In this document: positions 18,156 through 24,104 of the stretch, piece after piece
Numbering within the stretch: position 1 is the first letter of the stretch
How the letters are laid out: every line of letters starts with the position of its first letter
Notes under the pieces: model-generated
What the model was told of the DNA's origin: nothing
The model's input: the letters and a program-made list of their open reading frames with translations, nothing else
Databases searched by the model: none
DNA from: Arcobacter defluvii
GTDB lineage: Bacteria; Campylobacterota; Campylobacteria; Campylobacterales; Arcobacteraceae
Length of the DNA stretch: 64,000 bases
Assembly: GCF_013201725.1 (NCBI RefSeq)
Contig: NZ_CP053835.1
Location: 186,001-250,000, forward strand
Direction: 5' to 3'
Position numbers and translations under genes: made by a program

Positions 18156-19796
18156 ATGGAATTGGTTTATTTGTGGGTAAAGAATTATAAGAATATAGTA
18201 GAACAAGGATTTAATTTTTCACCTAGATTTAGGTGTGAGTATGATGAAGATACTAAAGAATTAAAAATTATCGATAAAGATGAAACGGGTGAATTTTATC
18301 CTAAAAACTTTTTTGGTGATAATATAAATGTAACTGCTATTGTCGGAGAAAATGGAAGTGGGAAAAGCAGTTTATTATTAGGAATTACTAATAGCAAAAT
18401 AATTATTAGAAGAGATAATCAATTCTATACGAATGATTTTACTAGTGAAATTCATAAGTTTACTAATATAAACAGAGAAAAAGACTATGATATTATTTAT
18501 ATGGATTTTGATTTAATAAAAATTAATCCTATAACAGATTTTTGGGATTTTAGTCAACAGAATATTTATGATAAAAATTTATATAAAAGAATTGAAAATA
18601 ACTTCTCAGGAAATGTAAATTTTAATATAATTAAATACAAAGAAAATTTTTACAATTTAATTATCAAATATAATGATTCTTTTTTATCTGAATTATTTTT
18701 TTACAATCCAATTGAAATAAGATTATCTGATTTTATAAAAACTATTCCTTTTCAGGATAGTCAATCCAAATATATCAATGATAAAATAAAATCTGTACAA
18801 AGTAAAAAATACTCAAAAATTAAATTTCTGACTTTTTTATATTCAAAAATTAAAAATAATCCAGAACTATCTAAATTAAAACATTTCGATGATGACATAA
18901 GTATTTTAGAAAAAGAACAAGATATTTTAAATTATAGTAGATTTAGTAATCAAGAAGAAATAGATAATATTTATAAGCTATTGCAAGTATTAGAAAATAA
19001 AAAAATTCATAAATTCTCAATTGAAGATTTTTATAAGCAAATATATAATGAAAATCGGGAGGCTTTTTTTAAACTAACAGAGCTTGGTTATTTAGAAGTG
19101 AATTTGAAAGATAAAACAGGTAGAGAATATTTTGATTTAAGCCAAGGAGAAAGAAAACTTTTTGCAGAATTTTTAATGCTTTTTAATAGTATAAGTAAAA
19201 GTGATAAAAGCGAAATCTTTCTTGTTCTTGATGAGCCTGATTTAACACTTCATCCTCAATGGCAAAAAAATTATATAAAAGAATTAATAAAACTACTTTT
19301 TAACTTTCCTAAAAAAAAGTTTCATATTATAATAACTTCACATTCTCCTTTTTTATTATCAGACCTACCAAAAGAAAATATAATATTTTTAGAAAAAGGA
19401 AAACAAGTTTATCCTTTTGAAGATGGAAAACAAACTTTTGGAGCAAATATTCACACTTTACTTTCTCATGGCTTTTTTATGAAAGATGGTCTTATGGGAG
19501 AGTTTGCCAAAGATAAAATAAAATCAATTATAAATTATCATGAAGAACTTTTGAAAAAAAAATTAACTAAAAACGAAAATAAAAAGCAAAGAGATGAAGA
19601 AAAAGTAATTTACGAAAAAGAGTATAAAACTAAGTTTAGGCAAATCCAATCAATTATCGGAGATGATTATTTAAAGCAAGTGATTAAAAATCATTTAGTA
19701 GAAATAGAAAAGATTTTATACGATGAATATTTGATTGATAAAGAGATAAAAAAACTTGAAGATGAAATTGAAAGATTAAAAAGGTTAAGAAAATAA
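18156..19796 (+). CDS. ABC/RecF-type ATPase, candidate PtuA of a Septu-like defence system
   Basis: The 546-residue protein has an ATPase head split by a long insert. Walker A is GENGSGKSS (64-72), the ABC signature is LSQGERK (328-334) and Walker B is LVLDEPD (356-362), followed by LHPQW and the switch strand IIITSHSPFLLSD. A charged coiled coil fills the last 110 residues. No TOPRIM or nuclease domain is seen, which separates it from OLD proteins. The stop overlaps the next start (TAATG), and that gene encodes an HNH protein. ATPase plus HNH in this order is the Septu (PtuA/PtuB) arrangement. Defence is inferred from architecture; a housekeeping SMC-like role is less likely. Confidence 0.75.
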   Translation: MELVYLWVKNYKNIVEQGFNFSPRFRCEYDEDTKELKIIDKDETGEFYPKNFFGDNINVTAIVGENGSGKSSLLLGITNSKIIIRRDNQFYTNDFTSEIHKFTNINREKDYDIIYMDFDLIKINPITDFWDFSQQNIYDKNLYKRIENNFSGNVNFNIIKYKENFYNLIIKYNDSFLSELFFYNPIEIRLSDFIKTIPFQDSQSKYINDKIKSVQSKKYSKIKFLTFLYSKIKNNPELSKLKHFDDDISILEKEQDILNYSRFSNQEEIDNIYKLLQVLENKKIHKFSIEDFYKQIYNENREAFFKLTELGYLEVNLKDKTGREYFDLSQGERKLFAEFLMLFNSISKSDKSEIFLVLDEPDLTLHPQWQKNYIKELIKLLFNFPKKKFHIIITSHSPFLLSDLPKENIIFLEKGKQVYPFEDGKQTFGANIHTLLSHGFFMKDGLMGEFAKDKIKSIINYHEELLKKKLTKNENKKQRDEEKVIYEKEYKTKFRQIQSIIGDDYLKQVIKNHLVEIEKILYDEYLIDKEIKKLEDEIERLKRLRK

Positions 19797-20704
19797 TGAT
19801 TTTAGTTAAATACAAAGAATTTGAGAAAAAAGATTATTATGAAAAAATTGCAAATTCAAAAATGCAAAAGCAAAATAATTGTAATTTTGAAGAATATTAT
19901 AATACTAATATAAAAGCCATTTTAAATAACTATTCTCTAGCAGATATTTTAATTGGTGATTTTGATAAGTTATTGGAGATAAAAGAATCTATTAATTTAT
20001 CAGATACAGATTTTGAAATGATTAAAACTTTTTTTAATTATGATAAAGCAAATTCAAAAGATTTTATTCCATTACTTTCAAAATTACAACCAAAAATATC
20101 AAACTTTTTTCAAGAAAATATAGAAGTTCATACTTGTTATTACTGTAATATTGATTTTATAAATACTTTTAGAAAAAACAATGAAACAAAAAATGCTTTT
20201 ACTTTAGACCATGTTTTAGAAAAAGCAGATTATCCATTTTTAGCATTGAGTTTATACAATCTAGTACCTAGTTGTTATGTATGTAATAGTAAGGTCAAAG
20301 ATTCAAAAATACCATTTGATAATTTCTCTCCAACAAATAAAGATTTTGATTTTGATAAAAGAGTAAAGTTTAAATCATTTATTTCAAATGTTAATCTTCA
20401 AATAGAAAAAGAACAAGATTTTTATATAAAATTGATTGAAAATTATTCAAACAAATATGATAAATATATAGAAAGTTTAAATTTAAACGATAGATATGAT
20501 TATCACAAATATAAAGTTTTAGAGATGATTCAAAAAAGAAGAGAATATCCAGATAGTAGAATAAAAGAGTTATCAGACTTGACTAAAAAAACGCAAGAAG
20601 AGATAAAACAAGATTTATTTGGTATTTACATATCTGAAGATTTACACAAACGTCCACTATCAAAACTAATCAAAGATATAAGCGAAGAGTTAGATTTGAT
20701 ATAA
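19796..20704 (+). CDS. HNH-type endonuclease, candidate PtuB of a Septu-like defence system
   Basis: The 302-residue protein has an HNH/zinc fold in its middle: CYYC (Cys114, Cys117), LDHVLEK with Asp138-His139, the asparagine of LYNLVP (Asn155), and CYVC (Cys160, Cys163). The flanking regions are helical and charged and match no domain I know. The start shares a base with the stop of the ATPase gene, so translation is coupled. By analogy with PtuB it would cut DNA when the ATPase senses infection. No reverse transcriptase or msr/msd-like RNA is visible beside it, so it does not look like a retron effector. Confidence 0.72.
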   Translation: MILVKYKEFEKKDYYEKIANSKMQKQNNCNFEEYYNTNIKAILNNYSLADILIGDFDKLLEIKESINLSDTDFEMIKTFFNYDKANSKDFIPLLSKLQPKISNFFQENIEVHTCYYCNIDFINTFRKNNETKNAFTLDHVLEKADYPFLALSLYNLVPSCYVCNSKVKDSKIPFDNFSPTNKDFDFDKRVKFKSFISNVNLQIEKEQDFYIKLIENYSNKYDKYIESLNLNDRYDYHKYKVLEMIQKRREYPDSRIKELSDLTKKTQEEIKQDLFGIYISEDLHKRPLSKLIKDISEELDLI

Positions 20705-20728: not shown

Positions 20729-21271
20729 TTAAAGACCAAAAGTTACCAAAAGTTCTGAATCTTCGATTTTTACATCTTTTACAAAAGAGCCTTTGAAAGA
20801 TGATTTATCTATTTTATAAACGGGAATTGTGTTGAAAATATTATCAACGATAGGTTTTGTATTTGCTACAACAGTATCTAAAATAGTTTTATCGATATTT
20901 AGATTTGTCATTTTTAACTCATCTAGTTCTATATCTTTTAGGTAGATTGCTGATTTTCCTTTATCAAAATAAGGCTCTCCACTAAAAGTTAGAGTTCCAT
21001 TTGAATTTGGTATAAAAATTGCAGAGATATTTAGATTTATATTTGCACTAATTCTATTTGTTCCATCTTTTATAAATAGATGAGGTTTTTGAAGTTCCAT
21101 ATTTGCAACTACAAAATCTTGTCTTATTGGAAATTCTTGTGAAAAGTTGTTTAGTTCACTCTCTTGAACTTTTAAAGTCAATCCATCACCATCAAATTTT
21201 TTTATACAACCTACAAAAAATAGAAGAGAAAATAAAACCAATAATATTTGAAGCTTTTTTTGAAGATACAT
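20729..21271 (-). CDS. DUF1439 (YceB-like) lipoprotein
   Basis: The 180-residue protein has a lipoprotein signal peptide ending in the lipobox FVGC (Cys22). The mature domain is beta-rich and matches the pattern of the YceB/DUF1439 family: LTLKVQESELNNFSQEFP near the start, a central IFIPNSNGTLTFSGEP, and a terminal amphipathic helix with KIDKSSFKGSFVKDVKI. Such proteins are thought to bind lipid-like ligands at the outer membrane. It converges on the HNH gene with a 24-bp gap. Confidence 0.75.
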   Translation of the reverse strand: MYLQKKLQILLVLFSLLFFVGCIKKFDGDGLTLKVQESELNNFSQEFPIRQDFVVANMELQKPHLFIKDGTNRISANINLNISAIFIPNSNGTLTFSGEPYFDKGKSAIYLKDIELDELKMTNLNIDKTILDTVVANTKPIVDNIFNTIPVYKIDKSSFKGSFVKDVKIEDSELLVTFGL

Positions 21272-21338
21272 TTTTTACCTTTTATTTAAAATTGTGAAAT
21301 TTTACAAATATAAATAAAAAGTTAGCTTTGATATGAAC

Positions 21339-21695
21339 TTAGTTCATACCAAGATTTTTTCTAACCATTGCTTTATATGCTTTCATATCATCACGTATCA
21401 TTGTTGGAATAATCTCTTCTTTACAAGCATGAACAATATTTGCAAATTCTGGTTTTGAATAAATTGTATTTCTATCTCTTGCTAAGATAATCAGTCTATT
21501 TACATCATCATCCAAAGATATATCACTTCTATCACAAATAGCATCATAAACATTAAAAAAAACTTCTCTATCATGTGAACTCATTTGACAACTGTCATCT
21601 AACATTTTAAGAGCTAGTTTTGAAGCGTATTCTATTTGTATTGGTTGAAAATCAAAAGTTGTTGCCCACTCATAAGCTTTTTTAAAATAATCCAT
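21339..21695 (-). CDS. small soluble protein of unknown function
   Basis: This acidic, probably all-helical 118-residue protein has no signal peptide or membrane segment. It has four cysteines and an LDDDVNRLIILARDRN stretch. A strong GAGGAG ribosome site precedes the ATG. Its upstream region is cut 66 bp before the start by the IS110 element, which may have removed or replaced its promoter. No family is recognised. Confidence 0.65.
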   Translation of the reverse strand: MDYFKKAYEWATTFDFQPIQIEYASKLALKMLDDSCQMSSHDREVFFNVYDAICDRSDISLDDDVNRLIILARDRNTIYSKPEFANIVHACKEEIIPTMIRDDMKAYKAMVRKNLGMN

Positions 21696-21764
21696 TTTTT
21701 CTCCTCGTATAATTAATTTTATGAATATATCATCTAGTTTTTAACTAAAAAATATATTCTTCTA

Positions 21765-21813
21765 AGATTGAAGTACTAACTTCAAATCTTTTACTTTTTA
21801 CAGTCTATGACTT
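21765..21813. repeat. left inverted repeat of the IS110 element
   Basis: This is the left arm of a 49-bp imperfect inverted repeat. It pairs with 23257-23305 at 39 of 49 positions without gaps. The best-conserved block is AGTACTAACTT. Such sub-terminal repeats are typical of the IS1111 subgroup of IS110 elements. Confidence 0.8.
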
Positions 21814-21819
21814 TAGATA

Positions 21820-22020
21820 TAACAACATTTTTCTCCTTGTAGCAATGATGAATTAAATTAATATTTCTTCTAACCAAACTACATCATTTAAGCCTGTTGA
21901 TATCTTTAGTTGTTAATCATTTATTAAAAGCTGTAGAGGTAGCTGTATAGCACTTACTACTTATAGATTAACGAGGCTGTGAATCTAGCTTAGGCTAGAA
22001 CAACTAAAGATTATTATAAA
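21820..22020 (+). ncRNA. candidate bridge RNA in the left end of the IS110 element
   Basis: This non-coding leader is richer in G and C than its surroundings and full of inverted repeats. One domain (21844-21921) has a stem AATGAT/ATCATT enclosing two guide-like segments. 21865-21873 (TTCTTCTAA) is identical to the left insertion flank plus core. 21901-21909 (TATCTTTAG) is the complement of core plus right flank. These are the orientations known for the left and right target guides of IS621. A second domain (about 21922-22011) contains hairpins TAGATT/AATCTA and CTAGC/GCTAG and may be the donor loop. A perfect 13-bp pairing (21902-21914 with 21999-22011) is an alternative fold. Boundaries are approximate. 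Confidence 0.6.
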
Positions 22021-22035
22021 CTGAGGTATAAAAAG

Positions 22036-23265
22036 ATGTATTATGTTGGAATTGATATTGCTAAAAATTTTCATGTTGTTACTATCATTGATGATAGTGA
22101 GAAAAAAATTACTACTAAACCTATAAGGGTTACAAATTGTATTGATGGATTTTCAAAGTTTATTGTTAAACTTGAAGCTATCTCATCAAATCCAAACGAT
22201 TTTATAATTGGTCTTGAAGCAACTGGAATTTATGGTGAAAATCTTTTAGAGTTTTTAAATGCTCATGGGTTTAATGTTAAACTATTAAATCCATTTCAAA
22301 CAACCAGATATAGAGAACAACACACAATGAAAAAAGTAAAAAATGACAATATTGATTCTTGGATTATTGCACTCTTCCTAAAAGATGGCAAATTTAGTTC
22401 AGGTTATGTAACTGATGATGAATATCAAAGTTTAAGAACTTTGTATCGTAATCGTGCTTCTATTCAATCAGATATGAAAGAGGTAAAAAAACGAATTATT
22501 ACTCAAGTAACAGTTACATTTCCCGAACTTGAAAATTTTATTGATATATTTAGTATCACAGGACTTGCACTTTTGGATAAATATCCAACTGCACATCATT
22601 ATAAACATAGTAGTGTTGATAGAATACTTAAGATATTTAGACATATTCAAGGAAATAGCTTTAATAGTGAAAAAGCCCTAAAAGTTTTAGAACTTGCAAA
22701 AAATTCTATCTATTCTGGTAAAGCCAAAGATGCAAGAGCCATAGCTATTAAAAGTTCTATTAGACTTCTTAAAATCTATCAAGATGAGTTATCTATTTTA
22801 GAAGATGAAATATTAGCTTTACTTGAAAACAATGGTATTAAAGAAGAAAAAGATGTTCCAACTAATTCATTGATTGAGAACTTAAAAACTATTCCAGGTG
22901 TTTCATCTAAAACTATTGCTGCAGTTATTAGTGAATGTGGTGATTTATCAAGATTTACAACACCTATTAAATTTATAGGGTATCTTGGACTATTTCCAAC
23001 AGAAAATAGTTCAGGTAATTCTAAATCAACAGGTCATTTAAGTCGTAGAGGTTCATCACTAGCAAAACATGCTCTTTATATGGCAAGTGTAAGTTGTATG
23101 ATACACAATAAAGAGCTCAAGCAATATTATGATACTAAAAAATCTCAAGGAAAATCTAAACAAGAAGGACTTATTGCTGTTTCAAGAAAACTAGCAACTA
23201 TTATCTATTCCATTTTTAGATACAACACCCCTTATGATCCAGCTCGTGTTTTTTCTAAGTCATAA
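22036..23265 (+). CDS. IS110-family transposase (RuvC-like DEDD recombinase)
   Basis: The 409-residue protein has the RuvC-like DEDD catalytic set: Asp7 in YVGIDIAK, Glu61 in GLEATG, and Asp104 and Asp107 in KNDNIDSW. The C-terminal Transposase_20 domain has LKTIPGVSSKTIAAVISECGD and FIGYLGLFPTENSSG, then STGHLSRRGSS. A helical linker lies between them. Length fits the longer IS110 members (about 400 residues). GAGG precedes the ATG with a 9-base spacing. The last codons and stop lie inside the right inverted repeat. The frame is complete, so the element may still be active. Confidence 0.95.
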   Translation: MYYVGIDIAKNFHVVTIIDDSEKKITTKPIRVTNCIDGFSKFIVKLEAISSNPNDFIIGLEATGIYGENLLEFLNAHGFNVKLLNPFQTTRYREQHTMKKVKNDNIDSWIIALFLKDGKFSSGYVTDDEYQSLRTLYRNRASIQSDMKEVKKRIITQVTVTFPELENFIDIFSITGLALLDKYPTAHHYKHSSVDRILKIFRHIQGNSFNSEKALKVLELAKNSIYSGKAKDARAIAIKSSIRLLKIYQDELSILEDEILALLENNGIKEEKDVPTNSLIENLKTIPGVSSKTIAAVISECGDLSRFTTPIKFIGYLGLFPTENSSGNSKSTGHLSRRGSSLAKHALYMASVSCMIHNKELKQYYDTKKSQGKSKQEGLIAVSRKLATIIYSIFRYNTPYDPARVFSKS

Positions 23266-23305
23266 ACAGTAAATTATAAAAGATCACAAGTTAGTACTAA
23301 AATCT
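23257..23305. repeat. right inverted repeat of the IS110 element
   Basis: This is the right arm of the 49-bp imperfect inverted repeat with 21765-21813. It includes the transposase stop codon at 23263-23265. Confidence 0.8.
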
Positions 23306-23540
23306 AAAGATAGCATTCAAAAAAGCTATCACTATACTAATTGCCAACCAAACATTTAAACTTGTTTGATCATAGAAACACTACTAGCAAAATTCTAGAT
23401 AATTGCATAAAAATAGTGCTTCCAAAATCAAACATCAGCAAGTTTTTTAAACTTGCAATGTTCTTAAAAAATACATTGTTAAAAAACTATTGTCTTTTTA
23501 AAATTTTCCTTTAATTTAAGTTATTCTTTATAAAAAGGCT
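23306..23540. other. hairpin-rich non-coding region to the right of the IS element
   Basis: No reading frame is supported here. The stretch holds at least four clean stem-loops: GATAGC/GCTATC (23309-23330), CAAACA/TGTTTG (23349-23368), GCAAGTTT/AAACTTGC (23438-23456) and CAATGT/ACATTG (23456-23478). Longer-range pairing is also possible (CACTAT with ATAGTG, GTTTGAT with ATCAAAC). It could be an unidentified RNA, decayed mobile DNA, or the 3' region of the minus-strand gene that ends at 23541. Confidence 0.4.
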
Positions 23541-24104
23541 TTAGTCCATATATGGTATATCTAAGTTTGCATCTCTATCACTTGCACTAAAATCAAAGTC
23601 ACTATTTATAAGAAGTTTTTGAAGATTTTTTTCCAAAACTTTTACTTGAAGTTTGTGATAGTTGTTTGTGTTTATATTTCTTTCTATTTCATTTTTATAA
23701 AAACTAAGAATTATCGAGTGAATTTGTTCTTGTTTCTCTAGTAATTCATTTAAAAAAGAGTTTAGTTTTGAAATATCAAAATCAGAAATTTTTGGCAATT
23801 TTCTTATTAGATTTCTAACAAACTGTTTTTGATGGTAACCTTCACTCATAGTTAAAAGTTTTGAAGCAGCATACATATCAGCTTCATTCCCTCCATAGTT
23901 ATATGAGTATCTAAAATGGTCACAAACAATCTCTATATATTTTGGATAATGTTTTAAAACAAAAACTAACTCCTTCAAATCTCCATCAATTAAAACTTGA
24001 AATAAAGTTGCTGTTCGTTTTTCTATTTTATCCCAGTGATTACCTTGTTCTTTAAATTCACCAAGAAATCGTTCATAATTCTTTAGTTTCTCTTTTTCTT
24101 CCAT
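23541..24104 (-). CDS. soluble helical protein of unknown function
   Basis: The 187-residue protein is charged and predicted almost wholly helical, with no signal peptide. The first 100 residues contain HWDKIEKRTATLFQVLIDGD and an aromatic patch FRYSYNYGG. The C-terminal part is coiled-coil-like (LNELLEKQEQIHSI). No family is recognised. It lies just outside the IS element and is divergent from the mla operon. Confidence 0.65.
   Translation of the reverse strand: MEEKEKLKNYERFLGEFKEQGNHWDKIEKRTATLFQVLIDGDLKELVFVLKHYPKYIEIVCDHFRYSYNYGGNEADMYAASKLLTMSEGYHQKQFVRNLIRKLPKISDFDISKLNSFLNELLEKQEQIHSIILSFYKNEIERNINTNNYHKLQVKVLEKNLQKLLINSDFDFSASDRDANLDIPYMD

What the first reader, a model, noticed from the sequence alone, without database searches (positions are those of the whole stretch)
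21844..21921. The IS110 leader carries guide-like segments matching both sides of its own insertion site
Seen: 21865-21873 (TTCTTCTAA) is identical to the left junction at 21757-21765. 21901-21909 (TATCTTTAG) is the exact complement of the right junction at 23304-23312. Both matches include the CT found at each end. Known: in IS621 the bridge RNA's left target guide equals the top strand of the left target and the right guide complements the right target, with a CT core and a stem around the loop. A flanking stem, AATGAT/ATCATT, is present at the right place. Inference: this is the target-binding loop of a bridge RNA not described before for this kind of host. Two 9-nt matches with the right polarity and register are unlikely by chance, though AT-rich DNA weakens the argument.
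Basis: partly seen in the sequence, partly recalled or inferred. Interest (0 to 1): 0.8.

Follow-up and report, generated by a model that had tools for sequence, protein, structure and literature searches.

The report
Bridge-RNA transposon aimed at ribosome-binding sites
This is a real IS110-type jumping element whose leader encodes a bridge RNA, but it is longer than first thought and its guide segments lie elsewhere: they spell the complement of the Shine-Dalgarno signal, which explains why nearly every copy sits just in front of a gene's start codon.

Summary
The letter matches exist, but the two "junctions" are internal sequence. Three identical copies in this genome, 14 in G014, one each in G016 and G083, and an empty orthologous site in the closest species put the element at 21704-23540 with CT cores at 21704-21705 and 23539-23540. 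Two such 9-mer matches arise in about 11% of random leaders. The broader idea, a bridge RNA in the leader, is right. The left target guide is 21828-21837 (TTTTTCTC-CT), with RTG 21889-21892, LDG about 21922-21932 and RDG 21971-21975. Across related clades the donor guides change in step with the element ends, and guide position -3 changes with target position -3 (Fisher p = 1e-4). The guide is anti-Shine-Dalgarno, and 34 of 37 insertions lie 8-10 nt from a start ATG. IS900, also IS110 family, was already reported to target translation initiation signals, so the behaviour has precedent; the guide-level explanation and this Campylobacterota lineage appear new in the literature held. Unexplained: every clade keeps clade-specific complementarity between the bridge RNA's 5' domain and the right end, and most carry a covarying right-end hairpin.

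The parts
21704..23540 (+). Complete IS110-group insertion element, 1837 bp (core to core)
   Evidence: 3 identical copies in G000, 14 in G014 (89% id), 1 each in G016 and G083; empty orthologous site in G010
21704..21705 (+). CT core at left end
   Evidence: constant LE starts CTCGTATAAT after variable flank; core is TT at both ends in clade B and an orthologous empty site there reads CC-TT
23539..23540 (+). CT core at right end
21706..21713 (+). Right donor sequence CGTATAAT; TATAAT would be the -10 box of a promoter completed only in the circular form
   Evidence: LE conserved as CGTATAAT, CCTATAAT or CATATAAT across clades; promoter role inferred
23530..23538 (+). Left donor sequence ATAAAAAGG; ATA/TAT short subterminal inverted repeat flanks the donor
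   Evidence: STIR pattern as in PMC11208160
21764..22012 (+). Predicted bridge RNA body (5' stem-loop, target-binding loop, donor-binding loop); transcript probably starts near 21719
   Evidence: fold z = -3.6; conserved in 8 clade-A leaders; extent inferred
21764..21790 (+). Conserved stem-loop (AAGATTGAAG...CTTCAAATCTT)
21815..21827 (+). 5' strand of target-binding-loop outer stem (AGATATaaCAACA)
21828..21837 (+). Left target guide TTTTTCTC-CT (anti-Shine-Dalgarno)
   Evidence: 10/10 identity to the window's left target plus core; position -3 varies with targets
21889..21892 (+). Right target guide TAAG (complement of CT-TA)
   Evidence: 3' side of the loop; +1 T in 31 of 34 targets
21893..21894 (+). 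Handshake bases CC, complementary to donor GG before the core
   Evidence: scheme from PMC11208158
21895..21905 (+).
21922..21932 (+). Left donor guide TATTAAAAG-CT, matches right end TATAAAAAGG-CT with one bulge
   Evidence: type-level permutation 6/720
21971..21975 (+). Right donor guide ACG-AG, complement of CT-CGT
   Evidence: changes with LE in four end types
22036..23265 (+). DEDD/serine IS110 transposase, 409 aa
   Evidence: PF01548 + PF02371; NF033542 IS110 family RNA-guided transposase 214 bits vs cut-off 140; IS621 8wt6 E 8e-17
21764..21824 (+). Left arm of long subterminal inverted repeat (5' domain of the bridge RNA)
23247..23305 (-). Right arm, complementary to the bridge RNA 5' domain; overlaps the last codons of the transposase
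   Evidence: own LE/RE scores 15-34, cross-clade at shuffled background
23363..23432 (+). Covarying right-end hairpin with internal loop, unknown role
   Evidence: 5 of 12 pairs with double changes, 0/500 shuffles reach the covariation score
21693..21703 (-). Left target: start codon (CAT, 21693-21695) and spacer plus most of the Shine-Dalgarno of the 118-aa gene 21339-21695

Best explanation
The feature is an IS110-group insertion sequence of Aliarcobacter-type bacteria (21704-23540). After excision the joined right and left ends would complete a promoter (TATAAT) that transcribes a bridge RNA from the left end. [quoted passage not shown] Its second loop pairs with the element's own joined ends (LDG and RDG). 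The DEDD/serine transposase then recombines target and donor at the CT core without further duplication. Because the guide is the complement of a Shine-Dalgarno plus A-rich spacer, the element lands in ribosome-binding sites, nearly always in the same orientation relative to the gene, and leaves AG-GAG next to the start codon. Shown by sequence: boundaries, empty site, guide/donor covariation, Shine-Dalgarno position. Inferred: transcription, RNA-protein complex, strand exchange, and that the restored Shine-Dalgarno makes insertions tolerable.
For: Boundaries from 19 copies with one core position; empty sites in 5 related species align at the core without the element, and likewise for the TT-core clade. 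RDG matches LE in every element, 5-7 nt with the core, through four end types CT-CGT/ACG-AG, TT-CGT/ACG-AA, CT-CCT/AGG-AG, CT-CAT/ATG-AG. LDG fits its own right end, 6 of 720 type permutations as good. LTG -3 C or T tracks target -3: 9/10 vs 3/21 C, Fisher p = 9.6e-5; the AGGAG share among AGGA sites is about 30% in both G000 and G014, so this is not a difference between those hosts. Handshake positions pair as in IS621: donor -1 in all testable elements, target -1 in all but three. 34/37 insertions lie 8-10 nt from a start ATG; background 2% for CT, 9% for TCCTT. Leader folds with z -3.6 and a loop exposing the LTG.
Against: No transcript or protein data. Many G014 targets match only 3-7 of 8 LTG positions, and RTG beyond +1 is not selected. 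Only 30-60% of good non-coding guide matches lie at gene starts, so guide pairing alone does not give the observed 92%; selection against other insertions or extra recognition is needed. Most stems in the clade-A leader alignment are invariant, so covariation of the RNA fold itself is thin.
Confidence: 0.92

Rival explanations
1. One reading: an IS of 21765-23304 whose guides are 21865-21873 and 21901-21909 and whose empty site reads TATTCTT-CT-AAAGATA.
For: Exact 9-mer matches with CT; a 49-nt inverted repeat ends at these points.
Against: All copies extend beyond these ends; the empty site differs; segments do not change in step; chance 11%.
Confidence: 0.01
2. An inner IS110 (21765-23304) sits inside an outer repeat and the composite moves.
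For: Inner inverted repeats look like ends.
Against: The outer segments occur only with the transposase in this genome and are kept in G014, G016 and G083; corresponding ends occur in distant clades. No empty inner site was found.
Confidence: 0.01
3. Target choice is not RNA-guided; Shine-Dalgarno sites are what survives selection or what the protein recognises.
For: Guide matches alone over-predict coding sites.
Against: Guide and target vary together at -3; donor guides vary with the ends; same scheme as IS621.
Confidence: 0.05

Closest known systems
IS621 / IS110-group bridge-RNA elements (PMC11208160, PMC11208158)
   Same: DEDD/serine recombinase, CT core, left-end RNA with target loop then donor loop, LTG/RTG/LDG/RDG polarity, handshake bases, ATA/TAT subterminal repeat, scarless insertion.
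   Different: Longer leader (about 290 nt predicted RNA against 177), long right end with conserved RNA structure, anti-Shine-Dalgarno guide instead of REP target, TT core in one clade.
IS900 of Mycobacterium avium subsp. paratuberculosis (Doran et al. 1997, title in the reference list of PMC8141618)
   Same: IS110 family; reported to target translation initiation signals; from memory its target consensus is CATG-N4-6-CNCCTT, start codon on the same side as here.
   Different: IS900 has an antisense ORF (hed); no antisense ORF of 80 aa or more was listed here. No guide RNA for IS900 was found in the papers held.
ISEc21 seekRNA (IS110 type, PMC11187229)
   Same: Upstream non-coding RNA with the bottom-strand match 5' of the top-strand match.
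   Different: Targets a codon motif in IS3 transposases.
ISPpu9 with Asr9/Ssr9 sRNAs (PMC8450116)
   Same: IS110-family element with RNA features on both sides of the transposase gene, partly complementary to each other.
   Different: There Asr9 is antisense to the leader and Ssr9 sense; here the right arm is the inverted complement of the leader and no transcript is known.

Membership tests
IS110 group (bridge-RNA recombinases) | DEDD_Tnp_IS110 (PF01548) and Transposase_20 (PF02371) domains | tested here: met
   106 and 78 bits, above cut-offs; NF033542
IS110 group (bridge-RNA recombinases) | Short core at both ends, no target duplication beyond it | tested here: met
IS110 group (bridge-RNA recombinases) | Non-coding RNA in the left end (IS1111: right end), left end longer than right | tested here: met
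   LE 332, RE 275; guides all in LE; RE is long for this group
IS110 group (bridge-RNA recombinases) | LTG equals top-strand left target, RTG complements right target, in one loop | tested here: met
   RTG only supported at the core and +1
IS110 group (bridge-RNA recombinases) | LDG and RDG match the element's own ends and covary with them | tested here: met
IS110 group (bridge-RNA recombinases) | RNA is transcribed and bound by the recombinase | not testable with these tools
   needs small-RNA sequencing and a binding assay
IS1111 group | Bridge RNA in the right end and 7-17 bp STIRs near the ends | tested here: not met
   guides in LE; STIR next to the donor is the short ATA/TAT type
IS900-like targeting | Insertion at the Shine-Dalgarno just upstream of a start codon, fixed orientation | tested here: met
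   34/37; IS900 itself was not compared by sequence

The most novel reading that the evidence does not exclude
These elements carry a second, right-end RNA that works with the bridge RNA: its arm pairs with the bridge RNA's 5' domain (a switch or sponge), and the partnership is under selection, since the complementarity is kept while its sequence changes completely between clades. Together with an anti-Shine-Dalgarno guide this would be a self-regulated RNA-guided transposon using translation start sites as safe harbours.
Probability: 0.35. Interest if true: 0.72.

Novelty: new variant of a known kind. Interest (0 to 1): 0.56.

Why it matters
It gives a guide-level explanation for Shine-Dalgarno targeting by an IS110-family element, a behaviour reported for IS900 in 1997. 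It adds a bridge-RNA lineage with natural guide, core and donor variants from Campylobacterota, useful for learning the pairing rules. The long LE/RE complementarity and the right-end hairpin point to a layer of control that I did not find described.

Tried and rejected
Rfam scan of 21000-24000: nothing but a sub-threshold chance hit. Viral contigs: no relative. Plasmids: two close Aliarcobacter relatives, the rest distant. A direct 14-mer repeat (21696-21709 / 21828-21841) was first read as chance; it is the target/LTG match. An outward promoter in the left end (21744-21716, minus) is within chance and not conserved. Joined flanks of copy L011 gave orthologous sites, but most were too diverged for a clean empty-site reading. 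No structure prediction was run because family membership is clear from sequence.

Full report
What was checked. The genome (G000) holds three identical copies, and identity runs from 21701 to 23541. G014 has 14 copies at 89% identity, G016 and G083 one each. Aligned on their flanks, all copies start at CTCGTATAAT (21704) and end at AAAAAGG-CT (23539-23540); G016's right core has mutated to AT. The closest species, G010, has the uninterrupted site CATTTTTTCTC|CTTTAGTCC. With free choice of junction, random leaders yield both 9-mer matches in 11% of trials.

What it is. The 409-aa protein is an IS110 transposase, related to IS621 and ISCro4, which have solved structures. The G016 copy lies on a 3297-bp contig that matches an Aliarcobacter MAG record (L078), so the window is probably Aliarcobacter. 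Relatives at 44-76% identity occur in Sulfurimonas, Sulfurovum, Nitratifractor and Aliarcobacter plasmids.

Bridge RNA. Eight clade-A leaders align closely; the window leader folds with z -3.6, and the consensus fold keeps the same target-binding-loop outer stem. In the MFE fold, a stem AGAUAU..CAACA/UGUUGAUAUCU closes an internal loop. Its 5' side is UUUUUCUCCU (21828-21837), its 3' side UCAUUUAAGCC. The 5' side equals the window's own left target plus core, 10 of 10; the chance of this in a random leader is 0.001.

Covariation. Right donor guide: CT-CGT ends go with ACG-AG, TT-CGT with ACG-AA, CT-CCT with AGG-AG, CT-CAT with ATG-AG. Left donor guide: most right-end types are served best or equally well by their own leader; 6 of 720 type permutations score as high as the true pairing. 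Left target guide: at -3, guide C goes with target C in 9 of 10 sites, guide T with C in 3 of 21 (Fisher p = 9.6e-5). Sites within one element are not independent. The share of AGGAG is about 30% of AGGA sites in both G000 and G014. Handshake bases described for IS621 (PMC11208158) also fit, though they vary little.

Target. Of 37 insertions counted, 34 lie 8-10 nt from the ATG of a gene reading away from the element. The same motif without the element gives 2-9%. The guide carries an anti-Shine-Dalgarno string in all clades, and clade B keeps it with a core shifted from CT to TT; orthologous empty sites confirm CC-TT. Guide matching raises the share of gene-start sites from under 1% to 20-50% and higher, but most other matches are inside genes. 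Selection against those, or further recognition, must add to guide pairing. The insertion leaves AG-GAG next to the start codon, which may preserve translation; this is inference.

Known or new. Bridge RNAs in left ends are established for the IS110 group (PMC11208160; PMC11187229). IS900 was reported to target translation initiation signals (Doran et al. 1997, cited in PMC8141618); its sequence consensus is from memory. A search for IS110 with Arcobacter found no paper; IS110 with Shine-Dalgarno found one paper, on Amoebophilus asiaticus, that was not read in detail. I therefore call it a new variant of a known kind.

Unexplained. In every clade the bridge RNA's 5' domain (21764-21824 here) is complementary over about 40-75 nt to the right end (23247-23305). 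Scores are 15-34 within an element and at shuffled background between clades. A right-end hairpin (23363-23432) shows compensatory changes, 0 of 500 shuffles reaching its covariation score. ISPpu9 has interacting RNAs on both sides of its transposase (PMC8450116), but in a different arrangement.

Noticed in passing
window 21764-21824 and 23247-23305: Clade-specific long inverted repeat between bridge RNA 5' domain and right end, kept in all clades while the sequence diverges.
   Followed up: partly
window 23363-23461: Right-end hairpin with covarying pairs and conserved internal loop, followed by a second hairpin at 23438-23456.
   Followed up: partly
window 21719-21760: A further 5' hairpin GAATATAT...ATATATTC upstream of the bridge RNA body, with compensatory-looking changes in relatives (GAGTAA/TTACTC).
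   Followed up: partly
L198 upstream of the transposase: Left end appears deleted between the target TCTCCTT and the guide TCTCCTT, as if by recombination between guide and target.
   Followed up: no
L144 (G016): Copy with a TAG stop in the transposase, an insert of about 23 nt in the leader and a mutated right core (AT): probably dead.
   Followed up: no
L193 and L194 (G005): Two copies with identical flanks, so probably a duplicated segment containing the element.
   Followed up: no
window 18156-20704: ATPase plus HNH-type gene pair matching candidate defence system PDC-M62 (A 7e-85, B 3e-49), weakly PtuA/PtuB.
   Followed up: partly
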